DNA of 20,382 bases from a virus: the IMG/VR virus record IMGVR_UViG_3300033182_000048, positions 1-20,382 of that record; one strand, given 5' to 3'. The notes beneath the pieces are model-generated. The model saw only the letters and a program-made list of their open reading frames with translations. It was not told the DNA's origin and did no database searches. Positions 1 through 19,323 of the stretch are shown in pieces. A program made the position numbers and the translations under genes. Within the stretch, counting starts at the first letter, position 1. Each line of letters starts with the position of its first letter.

Positions 1-153
1 CTATTAAAAGATACAGATCATTATGCTTTATCAGATCAAACTTTATCTGATGACATGAGAACTTACAGACAAAATTTAAGAGATATAACTAATGGATTGA
101 CTACAAAAGCTGAAGTAGATGCTGTTGTATTTCCTACTAAACCAACTTCTTAA
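1..153 (+). CDS. Tail-assembly chaperone-like protein, C-terminal fragment
   Basis: The first 50 codons of the window are open in frame 1 and stop with TAA at 151-153; the start lies outside. The visible part reads LLKDTDHYAL..., then DDMRTYRQNLRDIT, and ends PTKPTS. This matches the pattern of the phage tail assembly chaperone family (Phage_tail_APC: 'LL..tDw...D..l......YRq.LRdi' followed by a terminal proline-rich stretch), whose members are usually encoded at the end of the tail gene cluster. Family assignment is from memory of the pattern. It converges with the leftward phosphoesterase gene and overlaps its 3' end by 17 nt, so the rightward late operon probably ends here. No terminator hairpin is visible at the junction. 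Confidence 0.7.
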   Translation, partial: LLKDTDHYALSDQTLSDDMRTYRQNLRDITNGLTTKAEVDAVVFPTKPTS

Positions 154-838
154 TCCATTTACCTTCGTTGTTTAATACCATTGGAAGTAGTCTTGGTATT
201 CCATCTAAGATAATACCGCATCCAATTATAAATCTAGTCTTAAAATTTTTTGCGTATTGAAAAGCAAGTGACTTCTGATCTATGAGGCATCCTACATTCA
301 TACCAAAAAATATATTATCTGGATTGGCCCAATAGCTTATAATAAATTTAGTATGATAGTGACCCTGTACAGCAGACATACCCATTGTTTGAGATACTTT
401 TAATATGTCGGCAGATCTACCATGAGTAAAGAAACATCTTTGACCATTAGACATTGTGATAGTTAGATCATCAATCCATTGCCATTTCTTTGTACCAAGA
501 AAATCACCGTAGTCTTTAAGAAACTCTTTAGACATTCCATACTTCAATGCACGTCTATATACTAAACTACTATGATTGCTTTCTACTTCAATCATTTTAG
601 GAAATATATCTTCTAATTGTCTTACGTATTGTCTAGCAATTTTTAATTCATGACCAGCCGAGTAAAGGTCAGGATCGTGAGAGTGCATAGATATAGCGTG
701 GAAATCAAGTAAGTCACCAATATTAACCACGAGGTCTGGTTTATATTCATTCTTAATTTCACGTAGAAATTCAAAAGCGTCTTTATGATGGTAAGGTATA
801 TGTAAGTCACTAATAACTAATATTCTTTTGTGGGTCAT
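137..838 (-). CDS. Calcineurin-like metallophosphoesterase
   Basis: A 233-residue protein with the metal-binding signatures of the metallophosphatase fold: DLH near residue 11, GDLLDFH near residue 42, an NH motif near residue 88, and the C-terminal GHYHTKF near residue 160. The usual GNHD/E loop is degenerate here (SNHS), so the glycine and the acidic residue after NH are missing. Such phage proteins are presumed to hydrolyse phosphodiesters or phosphomonoesters; the substrate is unknown. It is the last gene of the long leftward operon, downstream of lysozyme, and its ATG lies inside the preceding 60-aa gene. A small hairpin (844-848 with 855-859) lies just ahead of the start, and no good Shine-Dalgarno is visible, so translation may be coupled to the upstream gene. 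Confidence 0.85.
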   Translation of the reverse strand: MTHKRILVISDLHIPYHHKDAFEFLREIKNEYKPDLVVNIGDLLDFHAISMHSHDPDLYSAGHELKIARQYVRQLEDIFPKMIEVESNHSSLVYRRALKYGMSKEFLKDYGDFLGTKKWQWIDDLTITMSNGQRCFFTHGRSADILKVSQTMGMSAVQGHYHTKFIISYWANPDNIFFGMNVGCLIDQKSLAFQYAKNFKTRFIIGCGIILDGIPRLLPMVLNNEGKWIKKLV

Positions 839-1005: not shown

Positions 1006-1449
1006 TTAATTAGCTTTGCAACTTCTCATTATTTCGGAAAGAGATTTGGCACGTGCAGGAGTTTGGTTTGCCCAACGGCTGTCCATCATTTGAAATGAAG
1101 CCTCACCATAATCTTCTTTGTTAAGCGCTTCCCACATCTTTTTAAATTTAGATACACCTCCAATGCCCAACTGAAAAACCATCTCAATTATGACACACTT
1201 AGCTTTGAATACAATGTGAGTACATTTATTATCTTCTATTAATCTTTCTGCATTACGTCTTGCTTCAAAGAAATCTGTTTCAAATAAACCATTTAATAAT
1301 TTATCTGAATACTCATGACCCTCTACAAAAGCATCTTGTGTAGTAAGTAAATGTCCATAACCGATTGTGGCAAAACCAAGGCTATCTTTATATACTGTGT
1401 TTCTGTAGCCTTCGTGTTCTTTAATACGTTTTTTAAGTTCTTCGTACAT
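1006..1449 (-). CDS. Endolysin, T4-type lysozyme (GH24 muramidase)
   Basis: A 147-residue T4-lysozyme-like muramidase that would cleave the MurNAc-GlcNAc bond of peptidoglycan at lysis. The catalytic triad is intact: Glu13 in EHEG, Asp22 in YKDSLG and Thr28 in FATIGYGH, with the spacing of T4 lysozyme (E11, D20, T26). The C-terminal helices also match (VFQLGIGGV, and DSRWANQTPARAKSL, the counterpart of T4 SRWYNQTPNRAK). There is no signal peptide, so export should need a holin, for which a candidate lies upstream in the same operon. Its ATG overlaps the stop of the preceding 90-aa gene (TAATG), implying coupling. It is unusual in being co-transcribed with the SSB and exonuclease genes rather than with the virion genes. 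Confidence 0.95.
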   Translation of the reverse strand: MYEELKKRIKEHEGYRNTVYKDSLGFATIGYGHLLTTQDAFVEGHEYSDKLLNGLFETDFFEARRNAERLIEDNKCTHIVFKAKCVIIEMVFQLGIGGVSKFKKMWEALNKEDYGEASFQMMDSRWANQTPARAKSLSEIMRSCKAN

Positions 1450-1721
1450 TATGCTTTGTTTTTATTGGCAAATGCTCTAGCTTGTTCTTTACTGCTAAAA
1501 CCCCATTTTTTTAACGCTAGTTTTAATCTGGTAGGTTTACCCTTACTATCAGTTAAAGGGCCATCCATGCCGCCAAAACGGGCCGCAAACGATATCCTAC
1601 GGCCACTCTTACCTTTTGATAAAGGTGGTTTTAAATTAGATCCTTCAGTACGTTTAAAATAATCTCTACCTTTTTGAGATAGGCCACCGCTAGGATTTTT
1701 ATGTTCTTTGCTGTAACCCAT
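1449..1721 (-). CDS. Conserved phage protein, DUF6321-like
   Basis: A 90-residue basic protein containing LSQKGRDYFKRTEGSNLKPP, then RRISFAARFGGMDGPL, and KPTRLKLALKKWGFS. The order GL(S/T)xKGRxYFxRxxGxxLKP... RRxSFxxRFxGMxGP... PTRxxLxLxxWGF is the pattern of a small family (DUF6321, from memory) common in marine phages and their environmental relatives. The function is unknown; the density of arginine and lysine suggests nucleic acid or phosphate contact. It is coupled at both ends: its ATG overlaps the stop of the 57-aa gene and its stop overlaps the lysozyme ATG. Confidence 0.7.
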   Translation of the reverse strand: MGYSKEHKNPSGGLSQKGRDYFKRTEGSNLKPPLSKGKSGRRISFAARFGGMDGPLTDSKGKPTRLKLALKKWGFSSKEQARAFANKNKA

Positions 1722-1894
1722 TATGCAGTACCAAACTTAGGAAACCCTGCTTTTGCTTTAGCATATTGTTTAGGATCAACAGTTGATTTAGATTTAGGAT
1801 TAGATGTGCCTTGTTTCTTGGCTCTATTCATATAGTAATACAAACCTTTTTTAGCTGTCTTACCAGATTTTGTCTTGTGATAACCTTTTTTCAT
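1721..1894 (-). CDS. Small basic protein, 57 aa
   Basis: A 57-codon frame that exactly fills the gap between the holin candidate and the DUF6321-like gene. It begins MKKGYHKTKSGKTAKKGLYY, carries about 16 lysines and ends FPKFGTA. The ATG at 1892-1894 is preceded by a good Shine-Dalgarno (AAAGGAAG) lying at the end of the preceding gene, whose TAA stops one base before this ATG; its own stop overlaps the next ATG (TAATG). The pattern KxGYxKxxSGKxAKKGLYYYxNxxKKxG resembles small unnamed proteins in marine phages. Function unknown; the lysine-rich composition suggests DNA or envelope contact. Confidence 0.75.
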   Translation of the reverse strand: MKKGYHKTKSGKTAKKGLYYYMNRAKKQGTSNPKSKSTVDPKQYAKAKAGFPKFGTA

Positions 1895-12679: not shown

Positions 12680-13108
12680 ATGACTAGAACCCTTACAGAA
12701 CAACAAAAACGCTTCATTGAGTACTTTAGCCAAACAGGCAACGCCACTCAATCTGCGATCAAGGCGGGATACTCTGAAAAAACTGCCGAGCAACAGGGCT
12801 ACGAACTTAAAAACAAGCTATCCAACGAGATTGACACGGCTACACGTAAGCTGTTGTCTGGTGCTGTTCCAATGGCCGTAGATAAACTTAAATCTTTGAT
12901 TGAGGGTGATAAGATTAGTCCAAGTGTTAAGCTGGGGGCTATTAACTCGCTACTTGATAGAACAGGCTACCAAACTACCCACAAGGTAGAAGACGTAACA
13001 GGTAAGAAAACAGACGAGGAACTACGCCAAGAACTCCAACATCTGCTAGGTGCTATCCATATCAAATCCTCTGACGAAGACGGCGGGGGTAATAGCTCTT
13101 TAAATTAG
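12680..13108 (+). CDS. terS: Terminase small subunit (Terminase_2 family)
   Basis: A 142-residue protein with the Terminase_2 pattern: LTEQQKRFIEYFSQTGNATQ, SAIKAGYSEKTAEQQGYELK, then IDTATRKLLSGAVPMAVDKL and SPSVKLGAINSLLDRTGY. It recognises phage DNA and loads the large subunit during packaging. AGGTG precedes ATG. Codon use is visibly richer in G and C than in the genes on either side (for example AACGCCACT and GGCTACGAA), as is the following spacer, which hints at a separate origin for this segment. The gene is unusually far (more than 600 nt) from the large subunit. Confidence 0.9.
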   Translation: MTRTLTEQQKRFIEYFSQTGNATQSAIKAGYSEKTAEQQGYELKNKLSNEIDTATRKLLSGAVPMAVDKLKSLIEGDKISPSVKLGAINSLLDRTGYQTTHKVEDVTGKKTDEELRQELQHLLGAIHIKSSDEDGGGNSSLN

Positions 13109-13530: not shown

Positions 13531-13729
13531 GCCAATTAAAGAATTAAAAACAATTCTACATTTTAAAAAAAATGGTTATATATATCGTTATGTTCTTGTT
13601 GATCGTTTTCAGCATAATAATAAATTTCACTATGGTTTTGATGTAAAATTAGAAAGAACTGAAAAAGAAATATGGGCGCTTGAAAATAACAGAAAAATAC
13701 GCAGAAAATATATTTTAAATAATGGATGA
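13523..13729 (+). CDS. Hypothetical 68-aa protein before large terminase
   Basis: A 68-residue basic protein starting MVKPIKELKTILHFKKNGYI, followed by YRYVLVDRFQHNNKFHYGF and LERTEKEIWALENNRKIRRK. I use ATG 13523 rather than TTG 13514, since TTG sits in the operator-like sequence. No Shine-Dalgarno is obvious. Its stop overlaps the large terminase start by 8 nt. A beta-rich small domain is likely, possibly linked with packaging by position, but the family is unknown. Confidence 0.6.
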   Translation: MVKPIKELKTILHFKKNGYIYRYVLVDRFQHNNKFHYGFDVKLERTEKEIWALENNRKIRRKYILNNG

Positions 13730-15140
13730 CGCATTACAAAGAGCAGTAGAAATAGCAAAAGAATTAGAACGTAGAAAAGCGACTAATCGGATGGCTCATT
13801 ATGAACCATATAAATATCAAGTAAAATTTCATAATGATAAATCTGCACAACGATTGTTAATGGCTGGTAATAGGGTCGGCAAGTCTTTCTGTGGGGCTAT
13901 GGAAATGGCGTACCATGTGACGGGTCACTACCCAACGTGGTGGGAAGGCAGAAAATTTAATAGACCAATACGTGCTTGGGCTGGGGGAGTTTCAAATGAA
14001 ACCACTAGGGATGTCTGTCAAAGAGAGCTTGTTGGCCAACCAGATGATCCATCTGCAAAAGGTACAGGATCTATCCCATTAAACAATATTGTTGATACGG
14101 TAAGAAAAGCAGGTGTACCAAATGCGCTAAACTCTGTAGTAGTAAAACATAAATCTGGAGGCAACTCTAGAATAGGTTTTAAAGCGTATGAAATGGGTAA
14201 AGAAAAATGGATGGGTGAAAGTCTAGATGTTATTTGGCTAGATGAAGAACCACCACCAAGTATATATTCACAAGCATTAACAAGGACAGCCGATAAAGGC
14301 GGAATTGTGTATATGACATTTACGCCAGAAAGCGGAATGACAGAAACAGTTGCACAATTTATGAACCAGTTAAAAGATGGACAAGCATTATTTACTGCGG
14401 GATGGGATGATGCACCACATATGACAAAAGAAGTTAGAGAACAAATACTACAAGCGTTACCACCGCATGAAAGAAAAATGCGTGAAAAAGGAATACCACA
14501 ATTAGGATCTGGTTTAGTATTTCCAATAGCTGAAGAAGATATTATTTGTGACCCAATAGAAATACCAACGCATTGGCCTAGAATATGCGGACTAGATTTT
14601 GGATGGGATCACCCAACAGCCGCTGTATGGATTACATGGGATAGAGATAGCGATATAATTTATGTTTATGATAGTTATTCTTTACGACAAGAAACTGTAC
14701 CTATTCATGCTAGTGCAATAAAATCAAAAGGACAATGGATACCTGTAATATGGCCTATGGATGGAAGACAAGCTGATAAAGGATCTGGTAAAAATTTAAC
14801 AGAACAATATCGTAAAGAAGGCGTAAACATGACTAGAGAACATTTTAGTAATCCACCAAGCGTAGGTCAAAAAGAAGGTAGCGGTGGTAATAGTGTTGAA
14901 GCAGGTGTTATGGAAATCTTAACACGTATGCAGACAAAGAGATTGAAAATATTTAAAAATCAAGATAAACTGTTAGAGGAATTACGAATGTATCACAGGA
15001 AAGATGGTAAGATTGTTCCTGCTAATGATGACGTAATATCAGCAATGCGATACGCTGTTATGTCATTAAGAAAAGCAAGAATTAAAAATTACGAACCTCA
15101 ACAATTATATTCTGATTCTGAATTTAGTGTATTTGGATAA
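13722..15140 (+). CDS. terL: Terminase large subunit
   Basis: A 472-residue packaging motor with ATPase and nuclease domains. Walker A is AGNRVGKS (48-55) and Walker B VIWLDEE (170-176, catalytic D174-E175). The nuclease domain begins at GLDFGWDHPTA (D292), with D347 in VIWPMDG and D436-D437 in NDDVISAMRYAVM as further metal ligands. It cuts concatemeric DNA and pumps it into the prohead through the portal. The start at 13722 overlaps the upstream gene's stop. The small-gene neighbours (three KTVLGG proteins) follow within 3 nt. Confidence 0.95.
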   Translation: MDDALQRAVEIAKELERRKATNRMAHYEPYKYQVKFHNDKSAQRLLMAGNRVGKSFCGAMEMAYHVTGHYPTWWEGRKFNRPIRAWAGGVSNETTRDVCQRELVGQPDDPSAKGTGSIPLNNIVDTVRKAGVPNALNSVVVKHKSGGNSRIGFKAYEMGKEKWMGESLDVIWLDEEPPPSIYSQALTRTADKGGIVYMTFTPESGMTETVAQFMNQLKDGQALFTAGWDDAPHMTKEVREQILQALPPHERKMREKGIPQLGSGLVFPIAEEDIICDPIEIPTHWPRICGLDFGWDHPTAAVWITWDRDSDIIYVYDSYSLRQETVPIHASAIKSKGQWIPVIWPMDGRQADKGSGKNLTEQYRKEGVNMTREHFSNPPSVGQKEGSGGNSVEAGVMEILTRMQTKRLKIFKNQDKLLEELRMYHRKDGKIVPANDDVISAMRYAVMSLRKARIKNYEPQQLYSDSEFSVFG

Positions 15141-15142
15141 TT

Positions 15143-15712
15143 ATGAGTAGAGAAAGTTATAGAACATCATCATCTTACAGATCATCTGTATCTGGTAAAC
15201 AAGCTAGAGCAAGTAAAGCAAGAGTAGAAGCATCAACTGGTAGATCTAAATTAGATAATTATCAAGTGCCTAAATCTAATACTGGAATAAAAGGATTAGA
15301 TATAGCTTTAAATGTAATTCAACCATTTAGACAAAAAACTTTTGAAGTAAACAGAGAGTATTTTCAAAAAAATGTAGCAGGTAAAAGAGGTTACAAAAAT
15401 ACTTTTGCAGATTATCAAAGATACATAACTGGTAGAGGTCAAGGAACATTAGATGCAATGGGAAGACCAATACAATCTGGTGATAATAATCAAAGAACAG
15501 TTTTAGGATCAACACAACAACAAACTGCTGAAGCACCTGCACAAACACCTACACCTGTAGAAACAAAAGAAGACATTAAGAAAAAAAGATCAACAACTAT
15601 AATGGGATCTGGTTATGGTCAAAGAACTATGTTGACAAGTGCTGCTGGTGATGAAACAGAAGCAAATGTTTCTAAAACTGTTTTAGGTGGAAGTGTAAGA
15701 AAAAGAATTTAA
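15143..15712 (+). CDS. KTVLGG-motif protein A, 189 aa
   Basis: Low-complexity N-terminus rich in S and R (residues 1-40), a central domain (GIKGLDIALNVIQPFRQ, about 48-64; YITGRGQGTLDAMGRP, about 94-109), a TVLG copy at 118-123 (RTVLGS), a PAQTPTPVE linker, and the C-terminal motif at about 157-183, GYGQRTMLTS...SKTVLGG, then a basic end (SVRKRI). The same motif closes the proteins at 15726 and 16431. Function unknown; between terminase and portal, a head or packaging accessory is likely. Starts 3 nt after the terminase stop. Confidence 0.75.
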   Translation: MSRESYRTSSSYRSSVSGKQARASKARVEASTGRSKLDNYQVPKSNTGIKGLDIALNVIQPFRQKTFEVNREYFQKNVAGKRGYKNTFADYQRYITGRGQGTLDAMGRPIQSGDNNQRTVLGSTQQQTAEAPAQTPTPVETKEDIKKKRSTTIMGSGYGQRTMLTSAAGDETEANVSKTVLGGSVRKRI

Positions 15713-15725
15713 CAAGGAGAAAATA

Positions 15726-15992
15726 ATGGGTGGATTTGTAAGAGCAATATCTAGAGCAGTATTTGGAACTCCACAACAACAAGCGCCTGTGCAAGTTGTT
15801 CAAGAACCAAAAAAAACTGTTACAGAACCGTCTGCTACACAATTAGCAAAAGAACAAGCTATGACTAAATCTAAATTAATGGGTGCTGGTTATGGCGGAA
15901 CTACAATTATGTCTAGTGCATCTGGTGTAGAAGAAGAAGCTGAAACTGCTAAAACTGTTTTAGGTGGTGCTAAGAAAAAAATGAAAGCATAG
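15726..15992 (+). CDS. KTVLGG-motif protein B, 88 aa
   Basis: An 88-residue protein with an amphipathic N-terminus (MGGFVRAISRAVFG), a Q/P/V-rich linker (about 17-40), and a C-terminal motif GYGGTTIMSSASGVEEEAE followed by TAKTVLGG (about 55-81), ending KKKMKA. Shares the motif with protein A and protein C. Strong Shine-Dalgarno AAGGAG. Its stop (TAG) overlaps the GTG start of the acetyltransferase. The conserved acidic tract (EEEAE) and terminal glycines suggest a binding peptide for a partner such as portal or scaffold; this is inference. Confidence 0.75.
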   Translation: MGGFVRAISRAVFGTPQQQAPVQVVQEPKKTVTEPSATQLAKEQAMTKSKLMGAGYGGTTIMSSASGVEEEAETAKTVLGGAKKKMKA

Positions 15993-16420
15993 TGATTAAA
16001 GTAGTTACTGACGATAAATGGAAACACCGAGTTGGTGATTACATAAAAAAAAATGCTTATATAACAGCAGATCTTGGTGATCAATTTTCTTATATTGGAT
16101 TTGTAGAAGACGATAAAGTTTTAGGTGGTTTTCTATTTTCTGATTATGATGGTAATAATATCTGGGTACATTTAGCATTAGAAACTCCTAGAGTTTGTAC
16201 AAAAAATCGTATAAAATATGTGTTTCAATACGGTTTTAAACAATTAGGCTGTAATAGAATGACAGCACTATGTCGTAACGGTTATGAAAGAAATGAAAGA
16301 TTGTTAAAAGGCGTAGGATTTGTTAAAGAAGGTATTGTACGTAAATGTTTTAATATTAACGGAACATACGTTGATGGTGCAATTTACGGAATGTTGAAAG
16401 AAGAATGTAAATGGTTATAA
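15992..16420 (+). CDS. GNAT-family acetyltransferase
   Basis: A 142-residue protein matching the GNAT fold of the RimJ/RimL type: a beta strand region (FSYIGFVEDDKVLGGFLF), then IWVHLALETPRVCTKNRIKY, a helix FQYGFKQLGCNRMTALCRNG, and NERLLKGVGFVKEGIVRKCF, the usual GF..EG..R element before the last strands (DGAIYGML). The Q/RxxGxGxA acetyl-CoA loop is not evident, so binding may be altered. Such genes recur between terminase and portal in marine podoviruses, and may acetylate a virion or host protein. Starts with GTG 15992, overlapping the TAG stop upstream. Confidence 0.85.
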   Translation: MIKVVTDDKWKHRVGDYIKKNAYITADLGDQFSYIGFVEDDKVLGGFLFSDYDGNNIWVHLALETPRVCTKNRIKYVFQYGFKQLGCNRMTALCRNGYERNERLLKGVGFVKEGIVRKCFNINGTYVDGAIYGMLKEECKWL

Positions 16421-16430
16421 AGGAATAATT

Positions 16431-16643
16431 ATGGGATCAAAAGCACAACCACAAATGCCACCCCCAGTAGATCAATCTGTTTACGATAAAACTGCTGAAA
16501 AAGAAGCGGCTATGGAAGCAGAAAAAGCAAAAGCATTAGGTACAAAACGTAAAGGTATGTACGGTACAATTTTAACAAGTGGTACAGGTGTTGAGGATGA
16601 AGCTGAAACATCTAAAACGGTATTAGGTGGTACAATAACATAA
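16431..16643 (+). CDS. KTVLGG-motif protein C, 70 aa
   Basis: The shortest of the trio: a P-rich start (MGSKAQPQMPPPVDQSVYDK), a charged helix (EKEAAMEAEKAKALGTKRKG) and the motif MYGTILTSGTGVEDEAET followed by SKTVLGGTIT (about 42-70). AAAGGA lies ahead of the ATG. The P-rich start and E/K helix resemble the leading segment of small head-completion or portal-assembly peptides, but no homologue is recognised. Located directly ahead of portal with one base between stop and ATG. Confidence 0.75.
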   Translation: MGSKAQPQMPPPVDQSVYDKTAEKEAAMEAEKAKALGTKRKGMYGTILTSGTGVEDEAETSKTVLGGTIT

Positions 16644-16644
16644 T

Positions 16645-18306
16645 ATGGCTACTTACGAATATATAAAAAAACGAGTTGATGCATTGGCATCTGATAGAGG
16701 AACGTGGGAAGTAAATTGGCAAGAAATACTTGACTACGTTATGCCACGTAAAGCAGACGTTGTTACACTAAGAACAAAAGGTGAAAAACGTACAGAAGTT
16801 TTATTTGATAGTACAGCTATTACAGCAAATAATTTATTAGCCGCAAGTTTACAAGGTACACTTACATCACCATCATTACCATGGTTTAGTGTAAAATTAA
16901 GAGATGAAACATTAAATGAAAATCGTGAAGTGCAGTTATGGTTAGAAGATACTGCAAAAAGAATGTACGACACATTTAATGAAACAAATTTTAATACTGA
17001 AGTACATGAGATGTATCTTGATATTTGTTCAATCGGTACTGCCGCATTATTTGTTGAAGAAGGTAACAGAGGTTTTGATACAGACGGTATTCATTTTAAT
17101 ACATTACACATTGCAGAATATTACATACAAGAAAATATAAATGGTAAAGTTGATACACTTTATAGAAAATATAAATTAACAGCTAGACAAGCTGTTCAAG
17201 AATTTGGTGAAGAAAATGTTGGTGAAAAAATTTTACAAGCGGCAAAAGAAAAACCAGATCAAAAATTTAATTTTATTCATGCTGTAGAACCAACTGAAGA
17301 TTACAAAAGAGCAACAGGTAAAACATCTACTAGATTACCATTTCATTCTTGTCATGTTTGTGAAGAAGATAAGATGGTTGTTAGAACAGGTGGATACAAT
17401 GAGTTTCCATATTTAGTACCACGTTGGTCAAAAGCAACTGGTGAAATTTTTGGTAGATCACCAAGTTACAATGCATTACCAGATATTAAAACTTTAAACA
17501 AAGCTGTTGAGATTGGATTAAAAGCATGGGCTAAAGCTATTGATCCACCATTACTTGTTCAAGATGATGGTGTTGTAGGTAGAGTTAGAATGACACCTGC
17601 TGGTATTACAGTTATTAGAAATGATGGTGCAGTTAAACCATTACAAATTGGATCTAATTGGCAAATTACAGATTTAAAAGAAAACCAATTAAGAACTGCA
17701 ATTAGACAAGCATATTATTCAGATCAATTACAATTACAAGAAGGCCCACAAATGACAGCAACAGAAGTACAAGTTAGATACGAATTGATGCAAAGATTAC
17801 TTGGGCCAACATTAGGTAGATTTCAATCAGAATTTTTAAATCCATTAATTGAACGTGTTTTTGGAATTATGTATCGTGCAGGTGCATTAATGCCAGAACC
17901 AGATATTATTAAAGGATCTAAAATAGATGTAGAATATTTAGGGCCATTAGCTAGATCACAAAGAATGGAAGAAGCAGTATCTATTGAAAGATTATATCAA
18001 TTAGCAATGAATGTTGCACAAGTTGATCCTGTTATTATGGATAACATAAACCATGACGAAGCAATTAGATTAAGAGGTAACTTATTAGGTGTACCTAAAA
18101 CTGTTTTACGTGGTAAAGATGAAGTTGAAGAAATGAGAAATGCACGTGCTGAACAACAACAAATGGCGGCAATGGCACAAGAACAACAAGCACAAGCACA
18201 AGCAATGAAAACACAAGCGGAAGCATCTAAAACTATGGCTGATCCAAATGTGCAAAGTATGTTATCTGATACAGCAGACGATATGGGTATTGCAGAAAAT
18301 ATTTAA
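16645..18306 (+). CDS. Portal (head-to-tail connector) protein
   Basis: A 553-residue T7-type portal: the N-terminus has VNWQEILDYVMPRKADV and TEVLFDSTAITANNLLAASL, then LQGTLTSPSLPWFSVKLRD, matching the 'bacteriophage head to tail connecting protein' family. It forms the dodecameric ring at one vertex, the docking site for terminase and later the tail. The C-terminus is long, Q- and A-rich (about residues 505-535, AEQQQMAAMAQEQQAQAQAM), as in other podovirus portals where it forms the internal barrel. Starts 2 nt after protein C; its stop overlaps the next gene (TAATG). Confidence 0.95.
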   Translation: MATYEYIKKRVDALASDRGTWEVNWQEILDYVMPRKADVVTLRTKGEKRTEVLFDSTAITANNLLAASLQGTLTSPSLPWFSVKLRDETLNENREVQLWLEDTAKRMYDTFNETNFNTEVHEMYLDICSIGTAALFVEEGNRGFDTDGIHFNTLHIAEYYIQENINGKVDTLYRKYKLTARQAVQEFGEENVGEKILQAAKEKPDQKFNFIHAVEPTEDYKRATGKTSTRLPFHSCHVCEEDKMVVRTGGYNEFPYLVPRWSKATGEIFGRSPSYNALPDIKTLNKAVEIGLKAWAKAIDPPLLVQDDGVVGRVRMTPAGITVIRNDGAVKPLQIGSNWQITDLKENQLRTAIRQAYYSDQLQLQEGPQMTATEVQVRYELMQRLLGPTLGRFQSEFLNPLIERVFGIMYRAGALMPEPDIIKGSKIDVEYLGPLARSQRMEEAVSIERLYQLAMNVAQVDPVIMDNINHDEAIRLRGNLLGVPKTVLRGKDEVEEMRNARAEQQQMAAMAQEQQAQAQAMKTQAEASKTMADPNVQSMLSDTADDMGIAENI

Positions 18307-18518
18307 TGGACGATAACAAAGAACACAAACAATTAAAAACAGATTACCAATCAACCTTTGATACAAAGGAAGGTAAACGAGTGTTGGACGATTTAAAATC
18401 GGCCTACTATCATAGAGGATCATTTTGTAAAGATCCACATGAAACTTCATTTCGTGAAGGACAACGAAGTGTAATAATCAGAATAATCAACTTAATCAAG
18501 GAGGATAAAGATGTCTGA
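18306..18518 (+). CDS. Bbp19-like phage protein
   Basis: A 70-residue protein: LKTDYQSTFDTKEGKRVLDD, LKSAYYHRGSF, then REGQRSVIIRIINLI. The pattern 'Y...F.(T/S)..G+.VL..L.......F........REG.RSVI..I' is that of small Bbp19-like phage proteins, usually encoded just after the portal. Role unknown; perhaps an adaptor or a packaging accessory. It starts within TAATG from portal and overlaps the scaffold gene ATG by 8 nt. Confidence 0.8.
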   Translation: MDDNKEHKQLKTDYQSTFDTKEGKRVLDDLKSAYYHRGSFCKDPHETSFREGQRSVIIRIINLIKEDKDV

Positions 18519-19323
18519 TGAACAAATGACCACAAACGACAATCCAGTACAAGAACAAGAAACTACTACTGTACTTGGATCGGGAAGTAACAATCAAGAT
18601 TGGAAATCATCACTTTCAGACGAGTTAAAAAATGATGCTACATTACAAAACTTTAAAGACGTAGAAAGTTTAGCAAAAACTGTAGTACATCAACAAAAAG
18701 TTTTAGGAAGCAGAATACCGTTACCTAAAACAGAAGAAGAATATAATGAACTTTATACTAAATTAGGAAGACCAGAAGATCCTAATAAGTACGAAACTAA
18801 TATTCCTCAAGATTACCAACAATACTTTAAACAAGAAAATTTAGACGAGTTTAAAAACGTAGCGCATAAAATTGGTTTAAATAATAATCAAGTTAATGCT
18901 TTGTTAGATTATCAAATCAACAGTATTAAATTTGAACAAGAAAATGAACCTGCATCTATAGCGGCAGAAAAATCACAAACCGAACAAATCTTAAAACAAG
19001 AATGGGGTTATGATTATGAAAAAAATGTTAGAGCCGCAGATAGAGCATTAGATGTTTATGGTGATGATGAATTAAGAGATTTAATGACAAATACATCTGC
19101 TGGTAATAATCCTGCTGTTATTAGATTTTTTGCAAGACTTGGTTCAGAAATAACAGAAGATATGGCTAAGAATACACAAAATAATAGATTAGCTGTATCA
19201 CCTTTAGACGCTAAAGAAGAAATACAAAAAGTTATGAATGATCCAAATCATGCATATCATAAAGGCGAACAAACGGCTGTTGAAAAAATGCGACAGTTAC
19301 ATGAAAAAGCCTATGGCGTTTAA
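18511..19323 (+). CDS. Capsid assembly scaffolding protein
   Basis: A 270-residue acidic, helical protein in the position of T7 gp9, just before the capsid gene. A disordered N-terminal third contains TTTVLGSGSN (about residues 18-27), echoing the TVLG element of the KTVLGG trio, then DWKSSLSDELKNDATLQNFK and a conserved part LGRPEDPNKYETNIPQDYQQ typical of phage scaffold proteins. The end (NPAVIRFFARLGSEITED, HKGEQTAVEKMRQLHEKA) forms the helical capsid-binding part. It should guide prohead assembly and leave during maturation. Strong Shine-Dalgarno AAGGAGG. Confidence 0.85.
   Translation: MSDEQMTTNDNPVQEQETTTVLGSGSNNQDWKSSLSDELKNDATLQNFKDVESLAKTVVHQQKVLGSRIPLPKTEEEYNELYTKLGRPEDPNKYETNIPQDYQQYFKQENLDEFKNVAHKIGLNNNQVNALLDYQINSIKFEQENEPASIAAEKSQTEQILKQEWGYDYEKNVRAADRALDVYGDDELRDLMTNTSAGNNPAVIRFFARLGSEITEDMAKNTQNNRLAVSPLDAKEEIQKVMNDPNHAYHKGEQTAVEKMRQLHEKAYGV

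What the first reader, a model, noticed from the sequence alone, without database searches (positions are those of the whole stretch)
15143..16643. Three small proteins sharing a C-terminal KTVLGG module around an acetyltransferase
Seen: proteins at 15143, 15726 and 16431 end in the same order, (GYG or MYG)xTxxxSxxGxxxEAxxxKTVLGG, though their N-terminal parts differ completely. A TVLG element also occurs internally in protein A and at the start of the scaffold. Such a shared tail on otherwise unrelated proteins suggests one common docking partner (portal, terminase or capsid) or a common modification site. The acetyltransferase is encoded between the second and third.
Basis: partly seen in the sequence, partly recalled or inferred. 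Interest (0 to 1): 0.7.

Follow-up and report, generated by a model that had tools for sequence, protein, structure and literature searches.

The report
Phage portal-side proteins sharing one tail
Three small genes of a marine, Pelagibacter-phage-like virus encode proteins with unlike fronts but the same roughly 28-residue end; this end marks an uncharacterised protein family encoded next to the portal gene of many short-tailed phages, and probably anchors small helper proteins in the channel through which the viral DNA leaves.

Summary
Proteins A (15143), B (15726) and C (16431) share a C-terminal module, roughly T-[IL]-[LM]-T-[SG]-x-x-G ... K-T-[VL]-L-G. The tails align far above shuffled controls (0 of 5000); the N-terminal parts do not.

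It is not peculiar to this phage. It marks PHROG family phrog_831 (function unknown), which includes epsilon15 gp3; BPP-1 Bbp22 carries it too. In 16 phage records searched whole, the module gives two matches in 13, one in epsilon15 and BPP-1, none in one. In 398 bacterial genomes, all 8 with phrog_831 at E<=2.5e-4 have a PF12236 portal on the same contig and strand, seven within 90 bases. The window is unusual in having three copies: A and B are normally alternatives for one slot.

Best explanation (inferred): small, mostly disordered portal/tail-channel proteins that work like T7 gp6.7 and gp7.3, with the shared C terminus as anchor. Homology to the T7 proteins was tested and not shown. Acetylation of the module lysine is not supported. 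The partner is untested: no complex could be modelled and no virion proteome was found.

The parts
13722..15140 (+). large terminase, directly upstream
   Evidence: PF03237 E=1.8e-25 and PF17289 E=8e-21
15143..15712 (+). protein A, 189 aa: Ser-rich front, helical domain, disordered linker, C-terminal module
   Evidence: ORF; relatives 52-57% identical; AF2 model
15236..15493 (+). A residues 32-117, predicted helical domain, shared with HTVC024P gp58
   Evidence: mean pLDDT about 69-89 per block of ten for residues 31-110, falling to 54 for 111-120; sequence comparison
15602..15691 (+). module of A (residues 154-183)
   Evidence: profile match; shuffles
15726..15992 (+). protein B, 88 aa: basic front MGGFVRAISRAVF, module at C terminus; weak phrog_831 match
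15879..15968 (+). module of B (residues 52-81)
15992..16420 (+). GNAT-type acyltransferase; start overlaps the stop of B by one base
   Evidence: phrog_4470 E=3.4e-23; PF13420 E=9.9e-5, just under cut-off
16431..16643 (+). protein C, 70 aa, phrog_831
   Evidence: phrog_831 E=2.1e-7
16431..16475 (+). front of C, MGSKAQPQMPPPVDQ, resembling the portal-binding segment of T7 gp6.7
   Evidence: pattern shared with T7 gp6.7 and P-SSP7 gp23; homology not shown
16548..16631 (+). module of C (residues 40-67)
16645..18306 (+). portal (T7-type head-tail connector)
   Evidence: PF12236 E=7e-141
18568..18579 (+). TVLG near the N terminus of the scaffold; possible partial copy of the module end
   Evidence: 70 of 71 clade scaffolds, 0 of 75 others

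Best explanation
A, B and C are small accessory proteins of the portal/tail channel, made together with the portal and built into the virion. Each has a variable, largely disordered front and the same C-terminal anchor peptide. The anchor binds a repeated site on one component of the portal-adaptor-nozzle channel (most likely nozzle or adaptor, next the portal), so different fronts are held in one place. The front of C resembles the T7 gp6.7 segment that lies on the outside of the portal barrel; the basic front of B resembles the start of T7 gp7.3, whose C-terminal residues bind the nozzle. They would help seat the internal core, dock the nozzle and hold the DNA end, and be released at ejection. 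Shown: the shared module, its conservation and its position; predicted: disorder of the tail of A. Inferred: presence in the virion, the partner and the function.
For: Position: phrog_831 directly upstream of PF12236 portals in an independent genome sample, in 9 of 9 epsilon15-type prophages, and only in that gap in whole phage records. Conserved end on unlike fronts. Tail of A predicted disordered. T7 gp6.7 and gp7.3, encoded just upstream of the T7 portal gene, are resolved virion proteins at the portal barrel and at the nozzle/DNA end (PMC11784390). phiKMV p29, next to its portal and a GNAT, is nearly identical to PDB 9s0y chain AE, 'tail channel protein'. Order small-GNAT-small-portal also in SP6 and phiKMV, and a GNAT in the same gap of BPP-1. 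Front pattern shared with T7 gp6.7 and P-SSP7 gp23, 115 of 230 family proteins v 9 of 1529 background ORFs.
Against: Profile comparison with T7 gp6.7, gp7.3, SP6 p29 and phiKMV p29 is no better than reversed controls, and the module is not seen in T7, so the analogy rests on position, size and a short front pattern. No virion proteome or structure of a module protein was found. The C model is of low confidence.
Confidence: 0.5

Rival explanations
1. Assembly factors acting before maturation: the module binds the portal, and scaffold (TVLG near its N terminus in this clade) and small proteins use the same site in turn; they need not stay in the finished virion.
For: Genes lie between terminase and portal; scaffold TVLG conserved in 70 of 71 clade scaffolds.
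Against: Scaffold TVLG is absent from 75 scaffolds of other module-bearing or related groups, and residues around it are conserved as well; the nearest analogues, T7 gp6.7 and gp7.3, are in the virion (PMC11784390).
Confidence: 0.2
2. The module, or its lysine, is a substrate of the neighbouring GNAT enzyme, which modifies the small proteins during assembly.
For: GNAT in the same gap in the window clade (all 65 loci holding both terminase and portal), BPP-1, SP6 and phiKMV; 72 of 74 GNAT loci keep the lysine in at least one copy.
Against: Module without a GNAT in the gap in HTVC010P-type phages and epsilon15; lysine replaced in 18 of 84 module peptides of GNAT loci; one lineage lacks it in both copies.
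Confidence: 0.1
3. Terminase-interacting proteins: the module recruits the packaging motor to the portal.
For: In this clade the first module gene directly follows the large terminase gene (2 bases after its stop).
Against: The constant neighbour is the portal: in epsilon15 gp3 sits next to the portal and 0.9 kb and a reversed gene away from terminase.
Confidence: 0.06

Closest known systems
phrog_831 (epsilon15 gp3, HTVC010P AGE60273.1 and AGE60274.1), function unknown
   Same: Small size, front with P-K/S-x-P, module at the C terminus, gene next to the PF12236 portal
   Different: Window copies have a short basic extension after the module; A has an added domain and no phrog_831 match; three copies instead of one or two
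BPP-1 Bbp22
   Same: Module at the very C terminus, upstream of portal Bbp21, GNAT in the same gap
   Different: One copy, 135 aa, Gln-rich front, only a weak phrog_831 match (E=0.0086)
T7 gp6.7 (PF17570, phrog_1391)
   Same: Small, upstream of the portal gene, front MCFSPKIKTP like that of C and epsilon15 gp3
   Different: No profile similarity; no module
T7 gp7.3 (PF11653, phrog_1320) and SP6 p29
   Same: Small, basic front, gene near the portal; C-terminal peptide of gp7.3 is the anchored part (PMC11784390)
   Different: No profile similarity to the module family
phiKMV p29 / PDB 9s0y_AE 'tail channel protein'
   Same: Next to the portal and a GNAT gene; C terminus ...GTGVSQTLGINY
   Different: Different PHROG (3112); no significant profile match to the family

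Membership tests
phrog_831 | profile match | tested here: met
   C E=2.1e-7; B E=0.0024 (weak); A no match
phrog_831 | gene next to a PF12236 portal (found here) | tested here: met
   C ends 1 base before the portal start; A and B 0.9 and 0.65 kb upstream
phrog_831 | module at the C terminus | tested here: met
   3-7 extra residues in the window copies
T7 gp6.7 (PF17570 / phrog_1391) | profile match | tested here: not met
   no match for A, B or C; hhalign no better than reversed control
T7 gp6.7 (PF17570 / phrog_1391) | N-terminal segment on the portal barrel | not testable with these tools
   only a shared short pattern in C
T7 gp7.3 (PF11653 / phrog_1320), phiKMV p29 (phrog_3112) | profile match | tested here: not met
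T7 gp7.3 (PF11653 / phrog_1320), phiKMV p29 (phrog_3112) | C-terminal peptide bound in the tail channel | not testable with these tools
   no complex prediction or virion data available
GNAT acetyltransferase substrate | invariant acceptor lysine in genomes with the enzyme | tested here: not met
   L069 and L070 have the GNAT and no lysine at the position in either copy

The most novel reading that the evidence does not exclude
The module is a docking peptide for one repeated site at the portal vertex, used in turn by the scaffold (TVLG near its N terminus) and by two or three small proteins with interchangeable fronts, so that one peptide code orders the exchange from scaffold to core and tail parts in a widespread group of podoviruses.
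Probability: 0.12. Interest if true: 0.7.

Novelty: new member of a known kind. Interest (0 to 1): 0.45.

Why it matters
HTVC010P-type pelagiphages are reported to be among the most abundant marine viruses (general knowledge), yet the genes between terminase and portal are annotated as hypothetical. Recognising a shared C-terminal anchor on paired small proteins, always at the portal, gives phrog_831 a testable role and suggests where to look for the gp6.7/gp7.3 counterparts that a recent Vibrio phage study could not identify by sequence (PMC13320782).

Tried and rejected
PDB sequence searches with epsilon15 gp3 and with a ten-member family profile: no relevant match. Foldseek of the A model: nothing significant in PDB; in viral models one 241-aa protein, the length of HTVC024P gp58 and so probably that protein. 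hhalign to T7 gp6.7, gp7.3, phiKMV p29 and SP6 p29: no better than reversed controls; P-SSP7 gp23 scored somewhat higher (probability 10.7% v 1.1% reversed), over a proline-rich stretch, and was not taken as evidence. phrog_4893 as an intermediate family in 398 genomes: two weak hits. The module alignment could not seed a collection scan; epsilon15 gp3 found nothing in genome contigs. TVLG inside A: rejected, absent from relatives. Acetylation site: see rivals. KC465899 turned out to be a myovirus, HTVC008M, and was not used. Rfam: nothing in the window. The epsilon15 structure papers are not in the library.

Full report
WHAT THE WINDOW IS. A 20,382-base contig held as a virus record. The head genes run on the + strand: small terminase 12680-13108, large terminase 13722-15140, A, B, GNAT, C, portal (PF12236, E=7e-141), a Bbp19-like protein, scaffold 18511-19323. 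The closest named record found is Pelagibacter phage EXVC032P Baldr, with the same gene order except that it lacks A and has one extra small gene between C and portal. Host and taxonomy were not tested further.

The three tails align far above shuffled controls (0 of 5000 shuffles reach any of the three scores) and the fronts do not. A profile of the three tails finds the module in nearly all of the 80 contigs fetched by portal similarity, as a rule one copy before and one after the acetyltransferase. In C the module is more constrained than the front (uncorrected pN/pS 0.38 v 0.63 over 18 sequences).

HOW FAR IT EXTENDS. The same end is found in epsilon15 gp3, BPP-1 Bbp22, two proteins each of HTVC010P and HTVC024P, and two of a podovirus from a Florida spring. 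Most of these match phrog_831, function unknown; Bbp22 only weakly. Over 193 distinct module peptides the core is T-[IL]-[LM]-T-[SG]-x-x-G and then [TS]-[LVI]-L-G; in the wider family it is the very C terminus (TLLGQ and the like), while the window clade adds a short, often basic extension.

POSITION. Three tests. (1) The module profile over 16 phage records searched whole gives two matches in thirteen, one in epsilon15 and BPP-1 and none in one; these are the copies already seen upstream of the portal. (2) Of 347 module matches in fetched loci, all 323 in loci where a portal was detected are upstream of it on the same strand; the other 24 are in loci without a detected portal. Part of those loci were chosen by portal, so this is not independent. 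(3) The independent test: phrog_831 and PF12236 were each searched in the same 398 genomes of one phylum. The 8 genomes with phrog_831 at E<=2.5e-4 all have a portal match on the same contig and strand, seven within 90 bases (in G090 only a short partial match, E=7.6e-8) and G265 2.7 kb downstream. None of the 10 weaker matches has one. Portals occur in 23 of the 398. Nine of nine prophage genomes chosen by an epsilon15-type portal have exactly one match. The threshold separating the 8 from the 10 was chosen after seeing both lists.

TWO FRONTS, ONE END. In window-type loci the order is B or A - GNAT - C - portal; in HTVC010P-type loci it is a C-like protein, then a second one of 55-236 aa, then the portal, without the acetyltransferase. 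A and B look like alternatives for one slot: no fetched locus other than the window has both. The near relatives L006 and L078 have only B, so A is an extra copy in the window; recombination and misassembly cannot be told apart without reads. A has a predicted helical domain followed by a disordered linker and module; C is predicted, with low confidence, as one helix with extended ends.

WHAT IT PROBABLY DOES (inference). T7 has two small virion proteins encoded just upstream of its portal gene. gp6.7 (88 aa) has residues 2-15 on the portal barrel and moves to the extended channel at ejection; gp7.3 (99 aa) has C-terminal residues 84-98 on the nozzle and lysines at the DNA end (PMC11784390). 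phiKMV p29, in the corresponding place, is nearly identical over 91 residues to PDB 9s0y chain AE, 'tail channel protein' (E=4e-51). The order small - GNAT - small - portal occurs in SP6 and phiKMV as in the window, and BPP-1 has a GNAT in the same gap. The front of C and of many family members shares the pattern M[CGS]x1-8P[KSQ]x0-3P with T7 gp6.7 and P-SSP7 gp23 (115 of 230 short module proteins v 9 of 1529 background ORFs, three of which look like unrecognised members). Upstream of 24 prophage portals, 13 of 295 ORFs carry a module-like end and 16 the front pattern, v 5 and 4 of 853 in antisense and downstream controls; 7 v 0 carry both. These patterns were written with the sequences in view, so the figures illustrate more than they test. 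From this I put about even odds on A, B and C being portal/tail-channel accessory proteins with the module as anchor.

LIMITS. Homology with the T7 or phiKMV proteins was tested and not shown, so this is 'works like', not 'is a'. Presence in the virion, the binding partner and any phenotype are untested. Locus counts include overlapping or near-identical contigs and are not independent events. The scaffold TVLG is conserved only within this clade.

Noticed in passing
L090:631-1032 (T7 gene 7): T7 gp7, between gp6.7 and gp7.3, weakly matches the phiKMV GNAT family phrog_3986 (E=0.025, residues 48-133 to 53-137) and phrog_5167 (E=0.01), both also hit by the phiKMV GNAT; no Pfam match. It may be a diverged GNAT, which would make the T7 order small-GNAT-small too.
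   Followed up: partly
window 1721-1894 (-); L084:5516-5662: A Lys-rich 57-aa ORF in the window's left part resembles, by eye, the 48-aa ORF that Baldr has between C and portal (both ...KxGTS..K..STV..K.Y...K.GFPK).
   Followed up: no
L208, ORF ending about 1459: The ORF just upstream of this prophage portal carries several module-like repeats (TLLNSAAGVG..., TLLTGAAGVD...LGKNTLGG...NSLLGA), as if the module had been duplicated inside one protein.
   Followed up: no
L223, ORF ending about 876; L248:2405-2686: A prophage protein has the MC...P..PPKPP front of this family but a different end (DSLRIPKKQSKGLNL), and matches the P-SSP7 gp23 family phrog_13568 (E=4e-7); the end looks, by eye, like that of T7 gp7.3 (KSLSVARSSGGGINI).
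   Followed up: partly
window 15143-15712: The window is the only one of the fetched window-clade loci with three module genes; A seems an added copy of the A type found elsewhere in place of B.
   Followed up: partly
window 1006-1449 (-): ORF that looks by eye like a T4-lysozyme-type endolysin (EGYRNTVYKDSLGFATIGYGHLL); not run against a library.
   Followed up: no
window 137-838 (-): Calcineurin-like phosphoesterase (PF00149, E=2.2e-8).
   Followed up: no
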